This document shows, one piece after another, positions 9,966-22,786 of a stretch of 38,123 nt of DNA; position 1 is the first letter of the stretch, and every line of letters starts with the position of its first letter. The notes under the pieces were generated by a model. That model worked only from the letters and a program-made list of their open reading frames with translations, was not told the origin of the DNA and made no database searches. The position numbers and the translations under genes are program-made. This DNA comes from a virus: positions 1 to 38,123 of the IMG/VR virus record IMGVR_UViG_3300037507_002241, one strand, 5' to 3'.

Positions 9966-11672
9966 CTACCACCCAGCGGCCACGGCATCTGGAGCTACCC
10001 GCTCAAAGACTGCCCTGCCCCGGCGCTCGGCCTCGGGATTTTGCTGACGCATATACTCGGCGTCCGACTTGGCCCCAGTGAAAAGCGGATGGTCGTGGTA
10101 GAAATTGATATGCCTGCCGTCCTTAACCACCCCTTCTTTGTAGGCCCGCCAACTCCATTCGGTGTCGCTCCAGTAGCCATCAAACTCAGGGTTGAAAAGC
10201 CATTTGCGGCCCGCCCAATAGGACCAGTTGAAGCAGGGCATGACCATGATCTGATCTTTGCGAAATCCATCAAAGACGTGGAGGACGGTCGCCTTGCCTT
10301 TGTTTGGCTCCATCGCCTGCACGATCTGCTCGTCCCAGCCGTGCGGCGGGTAGCAATCGTCCTGGGCAATCAAGATGATCTTGGCCGACTCGGCTGCGGC
10401 CTTGGCGGCGGCGTTGTAGTTGGCCACGGCGGATGAGTGACCCTCCGGCACGGCGGCACTGACGGCGTGAGGATAGTGCTTGATGCCATCAATCACCGCC
10501 TGATCGGCCTCATTGACTCCAAACCAATACGCGATCAGCTCGGGGCGAGCGGCCCGCTCTAAGTAAAGCTCCCGCATTTTGATAGCCTGCTCGGGGCGGC
10601 ACGTCGGGTGGCCGACTGCAATGCGTGGCCGGTGGCGGCGATGGTATTCCCGGCGGATCTTGTTAGCCTTTTCGGTGCGCCCGGCCTTGGCCAGTGCGGC
10701 ACACTTCAAATCGTGCGCCCGCCATCCGTAGAGGCTGGCATCGTGAATCCATGATGCGTCATCGGGGTCTTCGTGCGCCTCCATGTTGGCACACCACGCC
10801 ACGGCCTTGGACGCATCGCCTCGGGCTAGATGCACCTTGGCCAGTTCGGCATACCCTTCCCTGCGGTGCGGCATTAGGCGGACGGCCTCAAGCAGCGGGC
10901 GCTCGGCCTCCTCGATGTCCTTGAGCCAGCGGCCAATCGACAGATAGGCCAAATACTTTTCCTCCTTGGCCAAATCATCCCGCCCTGTGGCGACCACGGC
11001 GGCGGTCAAGGCCCCGGTGATGTCGCCCTGCATCTCGCACTCGCGGAAAAGAAACCACCACTCGCGTCCCGTGCGCTTGTCCTCGGGGATGGCGGTTAGG
11101 ATGCGCTTGTTGCGCTCTACGCTGCCGCGCTTGTTGACCGCTGGCATATGCACCACTTGAAGCTCTTGGCACCACGCGGCGTGCGTGTCGGGCTTGACCT
11201 CGATGTCTTCGTGGATGCAGTTGATCCATTTGTCGTAGACCTCCCTGTGGACGAGGCGGATGCGGCGGGCATAGCTGCCCTGCATTGATGTGACGTAGGG
11301 CGCGTAGACGGCCTCTTTGGCGTCCATCTTGCCCGCTCGTATCTCGGCCAGAACTTCTGCGCCTGTGGGGGCCAGCAAATCGTCGCAATCGGCCCACATG
11401 AGCCAATCGGCATCGGCGGGGGCAAGGGCAAAGGCTGCGTTGCGGGCGGCGCAAAAAGAATCGACGTGCGGCCAATCGTTGCCGGGGGCGTTAAGATACT
11501 CGCCCGTGATGCACCCGCGCGCCTTGGCGATTTCAAGGGTGGCGTCGGGCGGCTGGTTGCCGATGGCGCGGACTACGCTGATTGAATCAACGTGCGGCTG
11601 GAAGCTATCGAGAAAGCGGGTGATGTAGTCCGCTTCGTTTCCACAAATGATCCCGAGGTGAATTTTCGGCAC
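9966..11672 (-). CDS. Two-domain glycosyltransferase inside the head operon
   Basis: About 568 aa from GTG 11672 (a TTG at 11678 is also possible; no convincing Shine-Dalgarno). N-terminal GT2-type domain: IHLGIICGNEADYITRFLDSF, then ADWLMWADCDDLLAP with a D-x-D/D-D metal motif near residue 95, and VYDKWINCIHEDI. The middle (about 240-350) has TPR-like helical pairs (GYAELAKVHLARGDASKAVAW). The C-terminal ~220 residues form a second GT-A-like domain: RPRIAVGHPTCRPEQAIKMR, AKIILIAQDDCYPPHGWDEQ, and FDGYWSDTEWSWRAYKEG. There is no membrane segment. Lying between major capsid and connector, it is probably expressed late with virion proteins. The likely acceptor is a capsid or tail protein, which is inference. 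Confidence 0.85.
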   Translation of the reverse strand: MPKIHLGIICGNEADYITRFLDSFQPHVDSISVVRAIGNQPPDATLEIAKARGCITGEYLNAPGNDWPHVDSFCAARNAAFALAPADADWLMWADCDDLLAPTGAEVLAEIRAGKMDAKEAVYAPYVTSMQGSYARRIRLVHREVYDKWINCIHEDIEVKPDTHAAWCQELQVVHMPAVNKRGSVERNKRILTAIPEDKRTGREWWFLFRECEMQGDITGALTAAVVATGRDDLAKEEKYLAYLSIGRWLKDIEEAERPLLEAVRLMPHRREGYAELAKVHLARGDASKAVAWCANMEAHEDPDDASWIHDASLYGWRAHDLKCAALAKAGRTEKANKIRREYHRRHRPRIAVGHPTCRPEQAIKMRELYLERAARPELIAYWFGVNEADQAVIDGIKHYPHAVSAAVPEGHSSAVANYNAAAKAAAESAKIILIAQDDCYPPHGWDEQIVQAMEPNKGKATVLHVFDGFRKDQIMVMPCFNWSYWAGRKWLFNPEFDGYWSDTEWSWRAYKEGVVKDGRHINFYHDHPLFTGAKSDAEYMRQQNPEAERRGRAVFERVAPDAVAAGW

Positions 11673-11736
11673 TGACAAAAAGGAAGGGCCACGGCGAGTG
11701 GAACCGTGACCCCTTGGGTCGAAACCCTAAGTGAAA

Positions 11737-18623: not shown

Positions 18624-20405
18624 TTACGGGGTCACTTCTTCTGACGGGGCCGCGCCCGCGTCGAAATTCCCCCGGAGAATTTGCCAACTTACCACGGCCA
18701 GCTTGCAGCAATCGCCGTAGTGATCGTTCGGCAATTTCTTCCACGTTTGCAGCGTCCCGCCCGCCGTGCGCTTCGTCATGAGTTGCTGCCCGCTGAGTCC
18801 CGCGATGAGCGAGTCAGGTGCGTCAATCGGCAAACGGAAAAGCGGAACGCGGCGGCGATTGATTCGCCAATCGTAAAACTCCGTTTTGAGCGTTTGGTCG
18901 ATGTAAGTGTAAAGGCCCAATCCTTCGGGTTGTTGCAAGCGCGTGTATCGCACCGGGTCTTTGCCGAAAGCCGCGTCACTTCCTTTGCTCGGCCACAGCA
19001 CCGGGGCCGTGGCGTAGCACACATTGTAAACGCGCTCGGTAAGGTAGCCGCTATCGACAAGTCCGCGCTGAATAAAAACCTCATTGCCCGCCCCGTCGAG
19101 GTAACGAAGTCGAGCCGAGTTATCTTCCTGCACAAAGGCGATAAGGTCTTCGGGCGACAAGACTGTGCCGCAATCAATCGGGGTGATCTCTCCCGTCGTG
19201 CTGATTGCGGAAACAACCCAATGCGTCTGATTTTGTCCGGGGTCAGCACCAAGAAATAAATAAGCCAAGCGATCCCCGGAGCAATGCGGCGGGATCTTTT
19301 GCCACTCGCACGAAACGTCCCGGCATTGTCTCACCTTTTCCTCGCGGACGTTTACGTCAATCGGGGCGTAAGGAATCGCCAGCGTCGAGTTGTTAAAGTC
19401 CTGCAAGTCGGCAGGCGTATCCTTCCCCTGCAAAAACTTTGCTGCCAGCTCACCAAAGCCGCAGGATCGCCATGGCGCATAAAGCGAGTTGAGATGATAG
19501 CTGCGGCGTCCCGCAGATGCGGCGGGATTCGTTGCGCGCCATTCGCCCTCGCGCAGCATCTTGGTTTTGTTGCCGTCTGTGATTTTTCCTTGGCAAGCCG
19601 CGCATTCGTAGTAGGCCGAGGCGCGCACAGCGTCCTCGTTCCACTTGCCGTCAATCTTTGCTTCCTTGTCCCATCGCACTTGCGTGAATTCCAGCCGTTG
19701 CTTGTCGCCGCAATGCGGACACGGAACGTAGTAGTAACGCTGATCGCCCGATTCAAATGCCGTCCAGATTTCGCCGTCCGGGGTGGTCGGCGTGGAAGTC
19801 TTAACGCGCAGCGCGTTGGTGTAGCTCTTGGTGCGATTCTCGGCCAAGGCTACGGCAGAGGATTCCTTTTCCGTGGCCTCGGCAAACTTGTCCGTTTCGT
19901 CCATGACCAACAACCCGGCAGGGCGCGAAGCCAGATTTGAGGGCGAGTTAGACCCGACGAAGGTAAGCGTGGCGTCTTTGAATTGCTGCTCCAGCGTCTT
20001 GTAGCGATGCGTGTTGTGCGGCTTGAGCGCGGCCAAGGGGCGGCAGTCATCGACCATCGGTTGCCAGCGGTTCTCGGAGAATGAGCGCGCCATGCTTTCC
20101 GTGGGCATGACCCAAAGGGTCGGGAAAGGATTGTTGCTCATGCGCCACGCTGTGCCAATCATAACGATGGTTGTTTTGCTGGTCTGCGTTCCAAAGCAAA
20201 GCGCGAGGTCGGTCACTCGCGGATCGCTGAAACATTCCAGCGGTTCACGGACGTAAGGGGTGAGCAGGGTTGAATACGGCCCCGGCGTCTCGGTCTGACG
20301 GCGGGAAAGGACGATCTCGTCCTCTGCCCATTGCCAAACGCTGCGCGTGTCGATAGGTGCGAAGACATCGCGCAGGCTGCGATCAAGTTGTGCGGTGAGC
20401 GTCAT
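18624..20405 (-). CDS. Large terminase subunit, lambda GpA family
   Basis: 593 aa from ATG 20405 (a GTG at 20450 is inside the upstream gene). ATPase: Walker-A-like GTQTSKTT at 72-79 and Walker B LLVMDETD at 165-172. A zinc-ribbon pair lies at 229-232 (CPHC) and 268-271 (CAAC), usual for GpA. The nuclease half has LFLGADPGQNQTHWVV (first metal Asp, ~380), VDSGYLTERVYNVC and a C-terminal DHYGDCCKLAVVSWQIL. It cuts and translocates phage DNA into proheads through the portal. It overlaps the 61-aa coiled-coil gene by 23 bp. Unusually, ParB-like and glycosyltransferase genes separate it from the small subunit. Confidence 0.95.
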   Translation of the reverse strand: MTLTAQLDRSLRDVFAPIDTRSVWQWAEDEIVLSRRQTETPGPYSTLLTPYVREPLECFSDPRVTDLALCFGTQTSKTTIVMIGTAWRMSNNPFPTLWVMPTESMARSFSENRWQPMVDDCRPLAALKPHNTHRYKTLEQQFKDATLTFVGSNSPSNLASRPAGLLVMDETDKFAEATEKESSAVALAENRTKSYTNALRVKTSTPTTPDGEIWTAFESGDQRYYYVPCPHCGDKQRLEFTQVRWDKEAKIDGKWNEDAVRASAYYECAACQGKITDGNKTKMLREGEWRATNPAASAGRRSYHLNSLYAPWRSCGFGELAAKFLQGKDTPADLQDFNNSTLAIPYAPIDVNVREEKVRQCRDVSCEWQKIPPHCSGDRLAYLFLGADPGQNQTHWVVSAISTTGEITPIDCGTVLSPEDLIAFVQEDNSARLRYLDGAGNEVFIQRGLVDSGYLTERVYNVCYATAPVLWPSKGSDAAFGKDPVRYTRLQQPEGLGLYTYIDQTLKTEFYDWRINRRRVPLFRLPIDAPDSLIAGLSGQQLMTKRTAGGTLQTWKKLPNDHYGDCCKLAVVSWQILRGNFDAGAAPSEEVTP

Positions 20406-20568
20406 GTTTTTTCGCGTCGATATTGCGACGAATGAATTGCATTTCCTCACGAAGCAGGCGGCTTTGATGCTCTAACTCGCAAAGCCTTTTGTGCATTGCG
20501 GCGAATGAAGCAATCCACGGCGGAAGCTCTGCAGTGTCTTCTTTATCGCTTATGCTGCCTTGCGCCAT
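20383..20568 (-). CDS. Small coiled-coil protein, 61 aa
   Basis: MAQGSISDKEDTAELPPWIA then SFAAMHKRLCELEHQSRLLR and EEMQFIRRNIDAKKHDAHRT: a single long heptad helix. It overlaps the glycosyltransferase gene by 19 bp and the terminase start by 23 bp. Could be a terminase accessory factor; that is a positional guess. Confidence 0.6.
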   Translation of the reverse strand: MAQGSISDKEDTAELPPWIASFAAMHKRLCELEHQSRLLREEMQFIRRNIDAKKHDAHRTT

Positions 20569-21410
20569 TTCTCGTCTATGATCTTGGGGCAGGCGTTGTT
20601 CCACTTAATGTTGTGATGAATGCGCCTGTGCGTTGACCCAATCTCGGAAATGATTGTGCAAGACGGGGCATAGAGAACTGTATAGAAGCTCTTCACGTAG
20701 GTGCCGCTGCTTAAGTAAAGCTCGGTCATGCCACCTGCTGTCTGCTGTGTCGGCAGTTGTTGAATTGCAAGGTTAGGCACTTGCAAAAACAGGTGACCAC
20801 GTAGCCCCTCGCAAGTGTAGGTGCTAACGTCTTCGTTCATTCGTCCGAAGAATTTGAAGGGACGCTCCGTGCTACAAATCCATGTGTTCATGCACTTGCG
20901 TTTGAGAAAGAACTTTTGCGCTAGGCTCCCGTTTGCGCCACCTATAAAATCCCCTCCTTGCGCAAGAGCGATGCTTGTAGCCGGGGTGCTTTTGTAAAAC
21001 TCTAACAGCGCATCGAAAAGATCATCGAGTCTGCGAATATTTGTTTTATCGACATACTGCAAATGCTCGCCTGCCTTGTAGCGAAAATCTACGTAGTCAT
21101 CGTCTAACTGAATGAAGTATTTGTAGCCGAGTTCTTTGGCTACCTTAAAGCAGGCGTTGCGCGCGTAAACAATCGCCTTGCGATGCGCAAAGTTGTCGCC
21201 TGCGTCTGTTTCTTCGGCCATTGCTTTTTTGTCGAAGACATAGACTTGATCCCCGTAGAGCTTTCGATGCTCTTCGATAGTCTTGTCTTCGTTATCGACG
21301 AGGACGCAGATCGGCCCCGTGTATCCGTGACGCTTGAGCGACTTGTATGTGACAACCTTGTCCGGGCGTCCGTGCGTAAGGATAAACGCGATAAAGTCTT
21401 TATTCTTCAT
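20550..21410 (-). CDS. TET-associated-type glycosyltransferase (TAGT-like)
   Basis: 286 aa from ATG 21410. FILTHGRPDKVVTYKSLKRH, GPICVLVDNEDKTIEEHRKL, then DNFAHRKAIVYARNACFKVA, KELGYKYFIQLDDDYVDFRY: a GT-A fold whose LDDDY supplies the D-x-D metal site (~residue 122). Later SIALAQGGDFIGG and FFGRMNEDVSTYT follow. This is the pattern I recall for TAGT glycosyltransferases, phage enzymes proposed to glycosylate hydroxymethyl-pyrimidines in DNA. No TET/JBP dioxygenase is visible in this genome, so the acceptor is unclear. The gene overlaps ParB by 11 bp and lies inside the terminase cluster; it is visibly more AT-rich. Confidence 0.8.
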   Translation of the reverse strand: MKNKDFIAFILTHGRPDKVVTYKSLKRHGYTGPICVLVDNEDKTIEEHRKLYGDQVYVFDKKAMAEETDAGDNFAHRKAIVYARNACFKVAKELGYKYFIQLDDDYVDFRYKAGEHLQYVDKTNIRRLDDLFDALLEFYKSTPATSIALAQGGDFIGGANGSLAQKFFLKRKCMNTWICSTERPFKFFGRMNEDVSTYTCEGLRGHLFLQVPNLAIQQLPTQQTAGGMTELYLSSGTYVKSFYTVLYAPSCTIISEIGSTHRRIHHNIKWNNACPKIIDEKWRKAA

Positions 21411-22170
21411 CGCTGTTGTCCTGCATGTAGGTTTTGCGAATACTTTCGGACAGGCGCACATAGCCCTGTTCGATAGCCTTGTTAAAGTCGAGAATGACGA
21501 GGGCCGAGTCTTCCATTAGCTTTTGAACCTCCGGTTTTGAGTGCGCGTAGAAGTCGGCAACTTTGCCGAAGTCAAAAACGGTATGACGATGCGCTGCTGC
21601 GATGAGAAATGCTTTCGCGTCTTTCTCGATGTCAGCCTGCTCGATAGCAGCGAGCAGGCGTTCGGTTTTTTCCGAATGAAAAAGCTCGACGACCGCAGGC
21701 TTCGTCGGGCTTGGCTCGTAGGTCGGGGCTTCGATTTTGCGCGTGTAAGCCTCCTCTCCCGGCAGGGTTTCGCCCTCGTCCTGTAGCAGCGAGGCTAAAT
21801 CGTCTTTAGAGAACCCGACATCTTTCAGCCCGATTCCTTCCGCCGCCAATCCCTCAAGCTCCGCGCTCAATAGCTCGGTGTCCCACTCGGCCAGTTCCGC
21901 CATGCGGTTAATGCTGATCCGCAGAGCCTTAATGTCAGCCTCGCTCAAGTCATCACACAGAACGACCGGGACTTCCTTCATGCCGAGATGCTTTGCGGCC
22001 TTAACGCGCAGATGCCCGTCGATCAGTGAGCCGTCAGACTTCGCCAAGACCGGGACGCGAAAGCCGAAGCGTTTGATGGCCGAGGCCACCGTCTCAACGG
22101 CGTGATCGTTCTTTCGCGGGTTGCCCGCGTAGGGAATTAGTTTTTCAACTGATAGGTTTGTTGTTTTCAT
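21400..22170 (-). CDS. ParB/Srx-like nuclease-fold protein
   Basis: 256 aa from ATG 22170, with the Shine-Dalgarno-like AAAGGA 5 nt upstream. N-terminal ParB domain: VEKLIPYAGNPRKNDHAVET, then VPVLAKSDGSLIDGHLRVKA, AKHLGMKEVPVVLCDDLSEA and KALRISINRMAELAEWDTEL. The G-(S)-LIDGH-x-R motif is the ParB signature. The C-terminal ~100 residues are helical (LLAAIEQADIEKDAKAFLIA, VADFYAHSKPEVQKLMEDSA). Stand-alone phage ParB proteins often accompany DNA-modification or packaging genes. Here it overlaps TerS upstream by 26 bp and the glycosyltransferase downstream by 11 bp. Confidence 0.88.
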   Translation of the reverse strand: MKTTNLSVEKLIPYAGNPRKNDHAVETVASAIKRFGFRVPVLAKSDGSLIDGHLRVKAAKHLGMKEVPVVLCDDLSEADIKALRISINRMAELAEWDTELLSAELEGLAAEGIGLKDVGFSKDDLASLLQDEGETLPGEEAYTRKIEAPTYEPSPTKPAVVELFHSEKTERLLAAIEQADIEKDAKAFLIAAAHRHTVFDFGKVADFYAHSKPEVQKLMEDSALVILDFNKAIEQGYVRLSESIRKTYMQDNSDEE

Positions 22171-22786
22171 AGATTCCTTTGAAAAGAAGGCGCACCCAGT
22201 TTTCCATGATGCCCTTCGCATGAATCGGATCGTTCGGGTTAAGTTGCGCGGACAGGGCGGCGGGGGCGGCTACCAGCTTTTGCCGCAGATCGCTAAAGAC
22301 TTGCCGATATGTCCGCTCGGCGTCCTCGACTTGCATCGTCTTACCGTCGCGCTCCATAAGGTCACGAAGCTGCCGCTCATAGGCGACTTGCTTGGCGATG
22401 TATTGCTGATGCGTTTGCGCCCATCGGCGGGAGGCTTCGATGTCGCCGGAGTGGTGCAAGCGGGCGACTTGGGCGGCGGCGTGTTTGCGTAGCTGCCTTT
22501 GCTCGTTCAACGCCTCCCGGCAGTTGTCCGTATCGGTGAAGGTCTTGGCCGGTTCCGCGATGGGTTCGGGTTCGGCGGGTTCCGGTTCGGCTTCGTTCTC
22601 CGTGGAACTTTCTACGGGATTCGGGTTCGGCGCGGGTCGGGGTTGGCTCGATATGCGGCTGCGGCCATTGCGCTGATACCAAGATTGAGCGGCCTCAATG
22701 CTGTCAATGGGCATCCCGCGCTTGATGCACTTATGCGCCCCGGCCCCGGTAATTCCGAGGGCGGCGGCAAGAGCGCGGACAGTCAT
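22145..22786 (-). CDS. Small terminase subunit, Nu1-like
   Basis: 213 aa. The N-terminal HTH (MTVRALAAALGITGAGAHKC, IKRGMPIDSIEAAQSWYQRN) matches the winged-helix packaging-site-binding domain of Nu1/DUF1441-type proteins. A Pro/Glu-rich linker (~50-85) is followed by a helical region with REALNEQRQLRKHAAAQVAR and a C-terminal helix for large-subunit contact. It should bind the packaging site and recruit the large subunit. Four GTYAAC boxes lie immediately upstream (22787-22838), as cosB R-sites lie next to Nu1 in lambda. Confidence 0.82.
   Translation of the reverse strand: MTVRALAAALGITGAGAHKCIKRGMPIDSIEAAQSWYQRNGRSRISSQPRPAPNPNPVESSTENEAEPEPAEPEPIAEPAKTFTDTDNCREALNEQRQLRKHAAAQVARLHHSGDIEASRRWAQTHQQYIAKQVAYERQLRDLMERDGKTMQVEDAERTYRQVFSDLRQKLVAAPAALSAQLNPNDPIHAKGIMENWVRLLFKGIYENNKPIS

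What the first reader, a model, noticed from the sequence alone, without database searches (positions are those of the whole stretch)
20550..22786. TAGT-like glycosyltransferase and ParB inside the terminase cluster
Order: small terminase, ParB-like, TAGT-like glycosyltransferase, coiled coil, large terminase, all overlapping. TAGT enzymes are associated with glycosylated bases, but no TET/JBP oxygenase or hydroxymethylase is visible here. The donor base could come from elsewhere, or the target may be a protein.
Basis: partly seen in the sequence, partly recalled or inferred. Interest (0 to 1): 0.78.

Follow-up and report, generated by a model that had tools for sequence, protein, structure and literature searches.

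The report
ParB-linked phage glycosyltransferase with obligate partner
Many unrelated phages carry, just before their DNA-packaging genes, a two-gene unit made of a sugar-transferring enzyme and a previously unnamed partner domain often fused to a ParB domain; it most likely puts sugars on phage DNA without the oxygenase that such enzymes normally depend on.

Summary
20550-21461(-) is a TAGT (PF20691, E 4e-33) with the DDD and ED motifs intact. It overlaps a ParB-like gene and lies upstream of a GpA-type TerL. No TET/JBP, TS-type hydroxymethylase or C5-methyltransferase was found in the window.

The "ParB" gene has two domains: ParB_N and a C-terminal ~115-aa domain, here called TAC, which no Pfam family covers. 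TAC is the constant part. TAGT searches found TAC directly upstream in 47/47 readable viral loci and 41/42 prophages. A TAC-only search found TAGT downstream in 79/79. TAC diverges in step with TAGT; ParB_N does not, and it is shared with phage DNA-methyltransferases in the same pre-terminase slot.

In TET-type TAGT phages (Acadian, Klevey, Altadena) the order is ParB_N-TET-TAGT, so TAC occupies the place of TET.

Best reading: a TET-less DNA-glycosylating cassette, ParB_N recruiting and TAC being an obligate subunit, acting after replication and before packaging. DNA as target is inferred, not shown; the acceptor base is unknown. A protein target remains possible (animal relative GREB1 glycosylates a protein). 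The unit occurs in phages of bacteria and archaea, and at near-full length in 887 of 5,426 E. coli genomes.

The parts
20550..21410 (-). TAGT (PF20691) glycosyltransferase, GT-A type; conserved start ATG at 21410 (286 aa); the longest ORF starts at 21461
   Evidence: PF20691 E 3.9e-33; D103-D105 and D194 conserved across TAC-type, TET-type and T6 TAGTs; Foldseek of a homologue model to GT-A enzymes
21400..22170 (-). ParB_N-TAC protein (256 aa from ATG 22170; the longest ORF starts at 22221), overlaps TAGT by 11 nt
21802..22170 (-). ParB_N domain (ParB/Srx fold, GHxR motif)
   Evidence: Foldseek to ParB-CDP structures 6sdk and 7bnk
21406..21762 (-). TAC domain (name given here: TAGT-associated C-terminal domain), all-helical, acidic; invariant P166, Y168, F205, R212, A222, Y225, D245; near-invariant H213, E237
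   Evidence: high-confidence helical core
20383..20604 (-). 73-aa ORF with coiled-coil-like sequence between TAGT and TerL; role unknown, conserved only in the closest relatives
18624..20450 (-). terminase large subunit (GpA family)
22145..22786 (-). putative terminase small subunit (weak match)
   Evidence: phrog_57 E 9e-4

Best explanation
The ParB_N-TAC and TAGT genes encode one DNA-modifying complex. TAC is an obligate subunit that binds the TAGT. ParB_N is an exchangeable DNA-engaging module, possibly a CTP-dependent clamp, that brings the complex onto DNA. The TAGT transfers a sugar from a host NDP-sugar to phage DNA after replication and before or during packaging, so the virion DNA is masked from nucleases. 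It differs from the known TET-TAGT route in having no oxidised acceptor base made by a phage enzyme; TAC occupies the place of TET. Shown here: the domains, the obligate TAC-TAGT pairing, the catalytic residues, the pre-terminase location, the ParB_N exchange with DNA methyltransferases, and the absence of TET, TS-type hydroxymethylase and C5-methyltransferase. Inferred: complex formation, DNA as the target, CTP use, timing, the protective role, and the identity of the acceptor.
For: (1) TAGT with intact DDD/ED motifs and GT-A fold. (2) Reciprocal pairing: TAGT search gives TAC upstream in 47/47 readable viral loci and 41/42 prophages; TAC-only search gives TAGT downstream in 79/79. (3) Pairwise distances of TAC track those of TAGT (Spearman 0.49) while ParB_N, in the same polypeptide as TAC, does not (0.10), 82 loci; TAC is acidic (median pI 4.7), TAGT basic (8.9). 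(4) TerL follows within 7 kb in 67/70 ParB_N-TAC loci (median gap 452 nt in the non-redundant set), across several TerL families. (5) ParB_N is shared with DNA methyltransferases in the same pre-TerL slot; the ParB_N tree mixes the two kinds (20 changes, at least 5 forced), and the window's ParB_N lineage (row L002, 91% identical to the window) is closest by identity to a methyltransferase fusion (54%). (6) TET-type TAGT cassettes have the order ParB_N-TET-TAGT(-deacetylase) in mycobacterial and Arthrobacter phages. (7) No TET or C5-MTase in 46 records; TS family only in Vibrio pv27 and T6, with positive controls (for TET). Phage c5 (50 annotated ORFs) shows no polymerase or nucleotide-modifying gene, so any modification there would be post-replicative.
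Against: No nucleoside data exist. No known TAGT acts on an unoxidised base: T6 TAGT extends a sugar already present, and TET-type TAGTs are predicted to use 5-hydroxymethyl pyrimidines. The animal relative GREB1 O-glycosylates a protein. TAC is acidic, so it is unlikely to bind DNA itself. About a quarter of units lack ParB_N, and only 5 of the 25 such loci with over 3 kb of flank carry a separate ParB_N ORF nearby. The AlphaFold TAC-TAGT model gives no interface score.
Confidence: 0.55

Rival explanations
1. The TAGT glycosylates a protein (terminase, portal, capsid or a host factor), and ParB_N-TAC is a scaffold that presents this protein.
For: GREB1, an animal TAGT relative, O-GlcNAcylates a protein (cited in PMC12645433; homology to TAGTs stated in PMC4111573). 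The unit is next to packaging genes, and no acceptor-making enzyme is encoded.
Against: ParB_N is shared with DNA methyltransferases and TET cassettes, which act on DNA. The unit spans many different TerL families, so one common phage protein substrate is unlikely. Arthrobacter ParB-TET-TAGT cassettes show no terminase in the stretches read.
Confidence: 0.2
2. TAC is itself a catalyst that prepares the acceptor on the base, functionally replacing TET, and the TAGT then glycosylates it.
For: TAC lies where TET lies, between ParB_N and TAGT. It is strictly paired with TAGT and keeps invariant polar residues (Y168, R212, Y225, D245; near-invariant H213, E237).
Against: TAC is ~115 aa, all-helical and acidic, with no recognised metal-binding motif and no resemblance to a 2OG oxygenase fold.
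Confidence: 0.08
3. The acceptor base is made by the host or by an unrecognised phage enzyme, and TAC-TAGT glycosylates it conventionally.
For: The early genes of the window and relatives include many unknowns. Vibrio phage pv27 has TAC-TAGT together with a TS-family gene.
Against: The unit occurs across hosts from archaea to Proteobacteria and Firmicutes, with no recurrent third gene noticed; small phages such as c5 show no candidate.
Confidence: 0.12
4. The target is a small molecule or another nucleic acid (nucleotide second messenger, tRNA), making the unit an anti-defence enzyme rather than a DNA modifier.
For: GT-A enzymes acting on nucleosides exist (Foldseek hit 9jn3). The acceptor is unknown.
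Against: ParB_N exchange with DNA methyltransferases and late pre-terminase placement fit DNA better.
Confidence: 0.05

Closest known systems
TET/JBP-associated glycosyltransferase cassette (ParB-TET-TAGT-deacetylase, mycobacteriophage Acadian, Arthrobacter phages Klevey and Altadena)
   Same: TAGT of the same Pfam family with the same DDD/ED motifs; a ParB_N protein encoded upstream; in Acadian also just before the terminase
   Different: No TET and no deacetylase; TAC domain instead, fused to ParB_N or alone; only ~14-17% TAGT identity; TAC-type TAGTs have their own conserved residues (K172, M174, GTYxKSF, H265-H266) absent from TET-type TAGTs
T6 beta-glucosyl-HMC alpha-glucosyltransferase (ggt, PF20691)
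   Same: PF20691 family, same core motifs
   Different: No TAC; sits beside dCMP hydroxymethylase; extends an existing glucosyl-hmC; no significant pairwise BLAST similarity. The GenBank label 'beta-glucosyl-HMC-alpha-glucosyltransferase' on TAC-type TAGTs looks like over-transferred annotation.
Phage ParB_N-DNA methyltransferase fusions upstream of TerL (Javan316, P8625, pOW20-A, WOVitA1)
   Same: Same slot, same ParB_N module (up to 54% identity to the window's lineage)
   Different: The fused catalytic part is a methyltransferase; no TAC, no TAGT
E. coli Rac-type prophage YnaK and the downstream 'GREB1-related protein'
   Same: Full members of the TAC-TAGT unit, e.g. ATCC 8739
   Different: In K-12 only the first 254 nt of ynaK remain; TAC and TAGT are lost

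Membership tests
TAGT (PF20691) | Profile match over the curated cut-off | tested here: met
   115.6 bits against 27.5
TAGT (PF20691) | GT-A catalytic motifs (DxD, ED) | tested here: met
   D103-D105 and D194 invariant across TAC-type, TET-type and T6 TAGTs
TET/JBP-TAGT hypermodification cassette | TET/JBP oxygenase gene in the genome | tested here: not met
   No Tet_JBP match in the window or 45 other records; the same search detects three phage TETs
TET/JBP-TAGT hypermodification cassette | ParB_N protein encoded upstream of TAGT | tested here: met
   Window; controls
T-even type glucosyl-hmC pathway | dCMP hydroxymethylase (TS family) | tested here: not met
   PF00303 absent from the window; present only in pv27 and T6
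5mC-based TET pathway | C5-cytosine methyltransferase | tested here: not met
   PF00145 in 0 of 46 records, control genomes positive
ParB CTPase fold | ParB_N fold and CTP-binding motif | tested here: inconclusive
   Fold matches ParB-CDP structures; GHxR present but the canonical GERR and ENxxR motifs are not
DNA glycosyltransferase | Transfers sugar to DNA | not testable with these tools
   Needs biochemistry or LC-MS

The most novel reading that the evidence does not exclude
TAC-TAGT is a widespread route to sugar-bearing DNA that needs no hydroxylated or hydroxymethylated base made by a known enzyme: the complex either attaches sugar directly to a canonical base, or TAC itself creates the acceptor.
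Probability: 0.33. Interest if true: 0.86.

Novelty: new variant of a known kind. Interest (0 to 1): 0.64.

Why it matters
A 2026 survey (PMC13216743) reports solitary TAGT homologues in 288 of 753 phage genomes as an open question. If, as I expect but did not test against that paper's list, many of those belong here, then many 'solitary' TAGTs are not solitary: they have an obligate partner domain with no Pfam model, usually tied to ParB and placed before the terminase. That makes the question testable in a two-gene system, with natural E. coli prophage copies and a K-12 background that lacks them. If DNA is the target, it would be one of the more widespread phage DNA glycosylation systems, with consequences for restriction, CRISPR and DNA-glycosylase defences, and for sequencing of phage DNA.

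Tried and rejected
A mixed MSA for a TAC-TAGT complex failed at first because MAFFT put all TAC rows onto TAGT; a smaller set worked apart from ~16 tail residues. The modelled TAC-TAGT chain is a reading of L062 through its TAA stop, used only as a modelling device; it is no evidence of natural read-through. Its pTM is 0.64 and no interface score was given, so no interface is claimed. The ParB_N alignment was too variable for a collection scan. TAC has no convincing relative in Pfam or PDB: PF23887 was at best E 0.0018, below cut-off, and PDB hits are unconvincing. That ParB is the essential partner was rejected: about a quarter of non-redundant units lack ParB_N but keep TAC. A recently lost TET was considered and rejected: no TET, C5-MTase or TS gene in any TAC record except the TS-family gene of pv27. 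The TAGT-defining paper (doi 10.1093/nar/gkt573) and the GREB1 paper (PMC7968844) are not in the library, so whether the ParB-TAGT-terminase link was noted there could not be checked.

Full report
What is there. The window is a 38,123-base virus record, apparently a temperate siphophage: a weak integrase match, Erf, GpA terminase, portal, protease, tape measure. The named genes exist at the stated coordinates on the minus strand and overlap. The 303-aa ORF at 20550-21461 is a TAGT by Pfam (E 3.9e-33) and PHROGs. D103-D105 and D194 are invariant across TAC-type, TET-type and T6 TAGTs. A homologue model matches GT-A glycosyltransferases.

The ParB gene is two things. Its N-terminal half is a ParB/Srx domain: weak in Pfam, strong in PHROGs, and matched in fold to ParB-CDP structures. 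The C-terminal ~115 aa, called TAC here, is an acidic all-helical domain that no Pfam family covers. Sequences outside the window show which part matters. Viral contigs found by TAGT alone carry a TAC homologue directly upstream in all 47 loci where that DNA is held. In many it is a free ~130-aa protein without ParB_N. A search with TAC alone returned 79 new loci, all with TAGT downstream, one of them after a 0.9-kb gap. In prophages of many phyla, 41 of 42 TAGTs have TAC. After redundancy removal there are 97 ParB_N-TAC, 33 TAC-only and 2 other forms. TAC diverges together with TAGT (Spearman 0.49) while ParB_N does not (0.10), although ParB_N shares a chain with TAC. On the TAGT tree ParB_N presence changes state 13 times, at least 6 forced by well-supported branches. 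So TAC is the obligate partner and ParB_N an exchangeable addition.

Where it sits. TerL follows on the same strand within 7 kb in 67 of 70 ParB_N-TAC loci with enough flank and in 25 of 29 TAC-only loci. The median gap is 452 nt for the ParB_N type and about 3.3 kb for the TAC-only type. Several TerL families are involved. TerL was found with profiles seeded from some of the same loci, so absence is less certain than presence.

What ParB_N otherwise does. The same ParB_N module is fused to DNA methyltransferases in the same pre-terminase slot. Among 78 such viral loci, TerL was detected downstream in 44. The ParB_N tree mixes methyltransferase-fused and TAC-fused members (20 changes, at least 5 forced; few columns, poorly resolved), and the window's lineage is nearest by identity to a methyltransferase fusion at 54%. 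The TET-type TAGT cassettes also have ParB_N: Acadian gp1 ParB_N, gp2 TET, gp3 TAGT, gp6 terminase; Klevey and Altadena ParB, TET, TAGT, deacetylase. TAC therefore lies where TET lies.

What is missing. Of 46 records searched, 45 encode TAC-type units or their close relatives and one is T6. Tet_JBP matches none, whereas the same search detects the TETs of Acadian, Klevey and Altadena. TS-family enzymes occur only in Vibrio pv27 and T6, and C5-methyltransferases in none. Many records are fragments. Complete phage c5 (50 annotated ORFs) shows no nucleotide-modifying or polymerase gene.

Mechanism. The most economical account is a post-replicative DNA-glycosylating complex: TAC binds and licenses the TAGT, ParB_N recruits it to DNA where present, and the product is packaged. 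The acceptor is unknown. The TAC-type TAGTs keep the donor-side motifs of TET-type enzymes but have their own conserved residues (K172, M174, GTYxKSF, H265-H266), which fits a different acceptor. GREB1 shows that the wider family can act on protein, so that rival stays open at about 0.2.

Relation to the literature. TAGTs were defined by linkage to TET/JBP genes in phages (described in PMC4111573). T6 TAGT adds a second glucose to glucosyl-hmC (PMC13390438, PMC13216743). The 2026 survey reports 288 of 753 phage genomes with solitary TAGTs and suggests novel transferases. TAC is not named in any paper I could read. Two key papers were not available, so priority for the ParB-TAGT link cannot be judged.

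E. coli. The unit sits in Rac-type prophages: 1,575 of 5,426 complete genomes match some part and 887 cover at least 80%. In ATCC 8739 both ORFs are intact (262 and 310 aa), although the annotation marks ynaK as truncated. K-12 keeps only the first 254 nt, which makes it a natural null background.

Noticed in passing
window 9966-11678 (-): A 570-aa protein next to the putative major capsid gene matches phage 'beta-1,4-glycosyltransferase' families over two stretches: a second, unrelated glycosyltransferase that could act on virion protein.
   Followed up: no
L157 7151-8849, L164 641-2331, L166 7156-8837, L181 5866-8855, L036 5053-6702: Units with two or three TAGT genes in tandem, or two TAGTs fused in one ORF, with a single TAC; suggests addition of more than one sugar.
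   Followed up: partly
L266 9001-9789 (E. coli ATCC 8739) and L277 5878-6141 (K-12): RefSeq marks ynaK as a truncated pseudogene where the ORF is intact at 262 aa; in K-12 it really is truncated after 254 nt and TAC and TAGT are missing.
   Followed up: yes
L126 9183-10445 and L028 11391-12098: Further glycosyltransferase genes (GT group 1; weak GT8) between TAGT and the packaging genes in TAC-only phages.
   Followed up: no
L044 12007-12597, L100 13082-13651, L119 10554-11039, L155 196-465: TAC-only units with a separate ParB_N ORF within 8 kb on the same strand, so ParB_N may act in trans.
   Followed up: partly
L264 3474-4688 (phage WOVitA1 of Wolbachia): Putative DNA methylase with a ParB_N domain upstream of a terminase gene, the methyltransferase version of the same slot.
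   Followed up: partly
L051 5631-7106 and L266 7406-8863: A TrkG potassium transporter gene lies directly upstream of the ParB_N-TAC gene in Rac-type E. coli prophages.
   Followed up: no
L167 4468-5979: The one prophage locus with ParB_N and TAGT but no detectable TAC.
   Followed up: no
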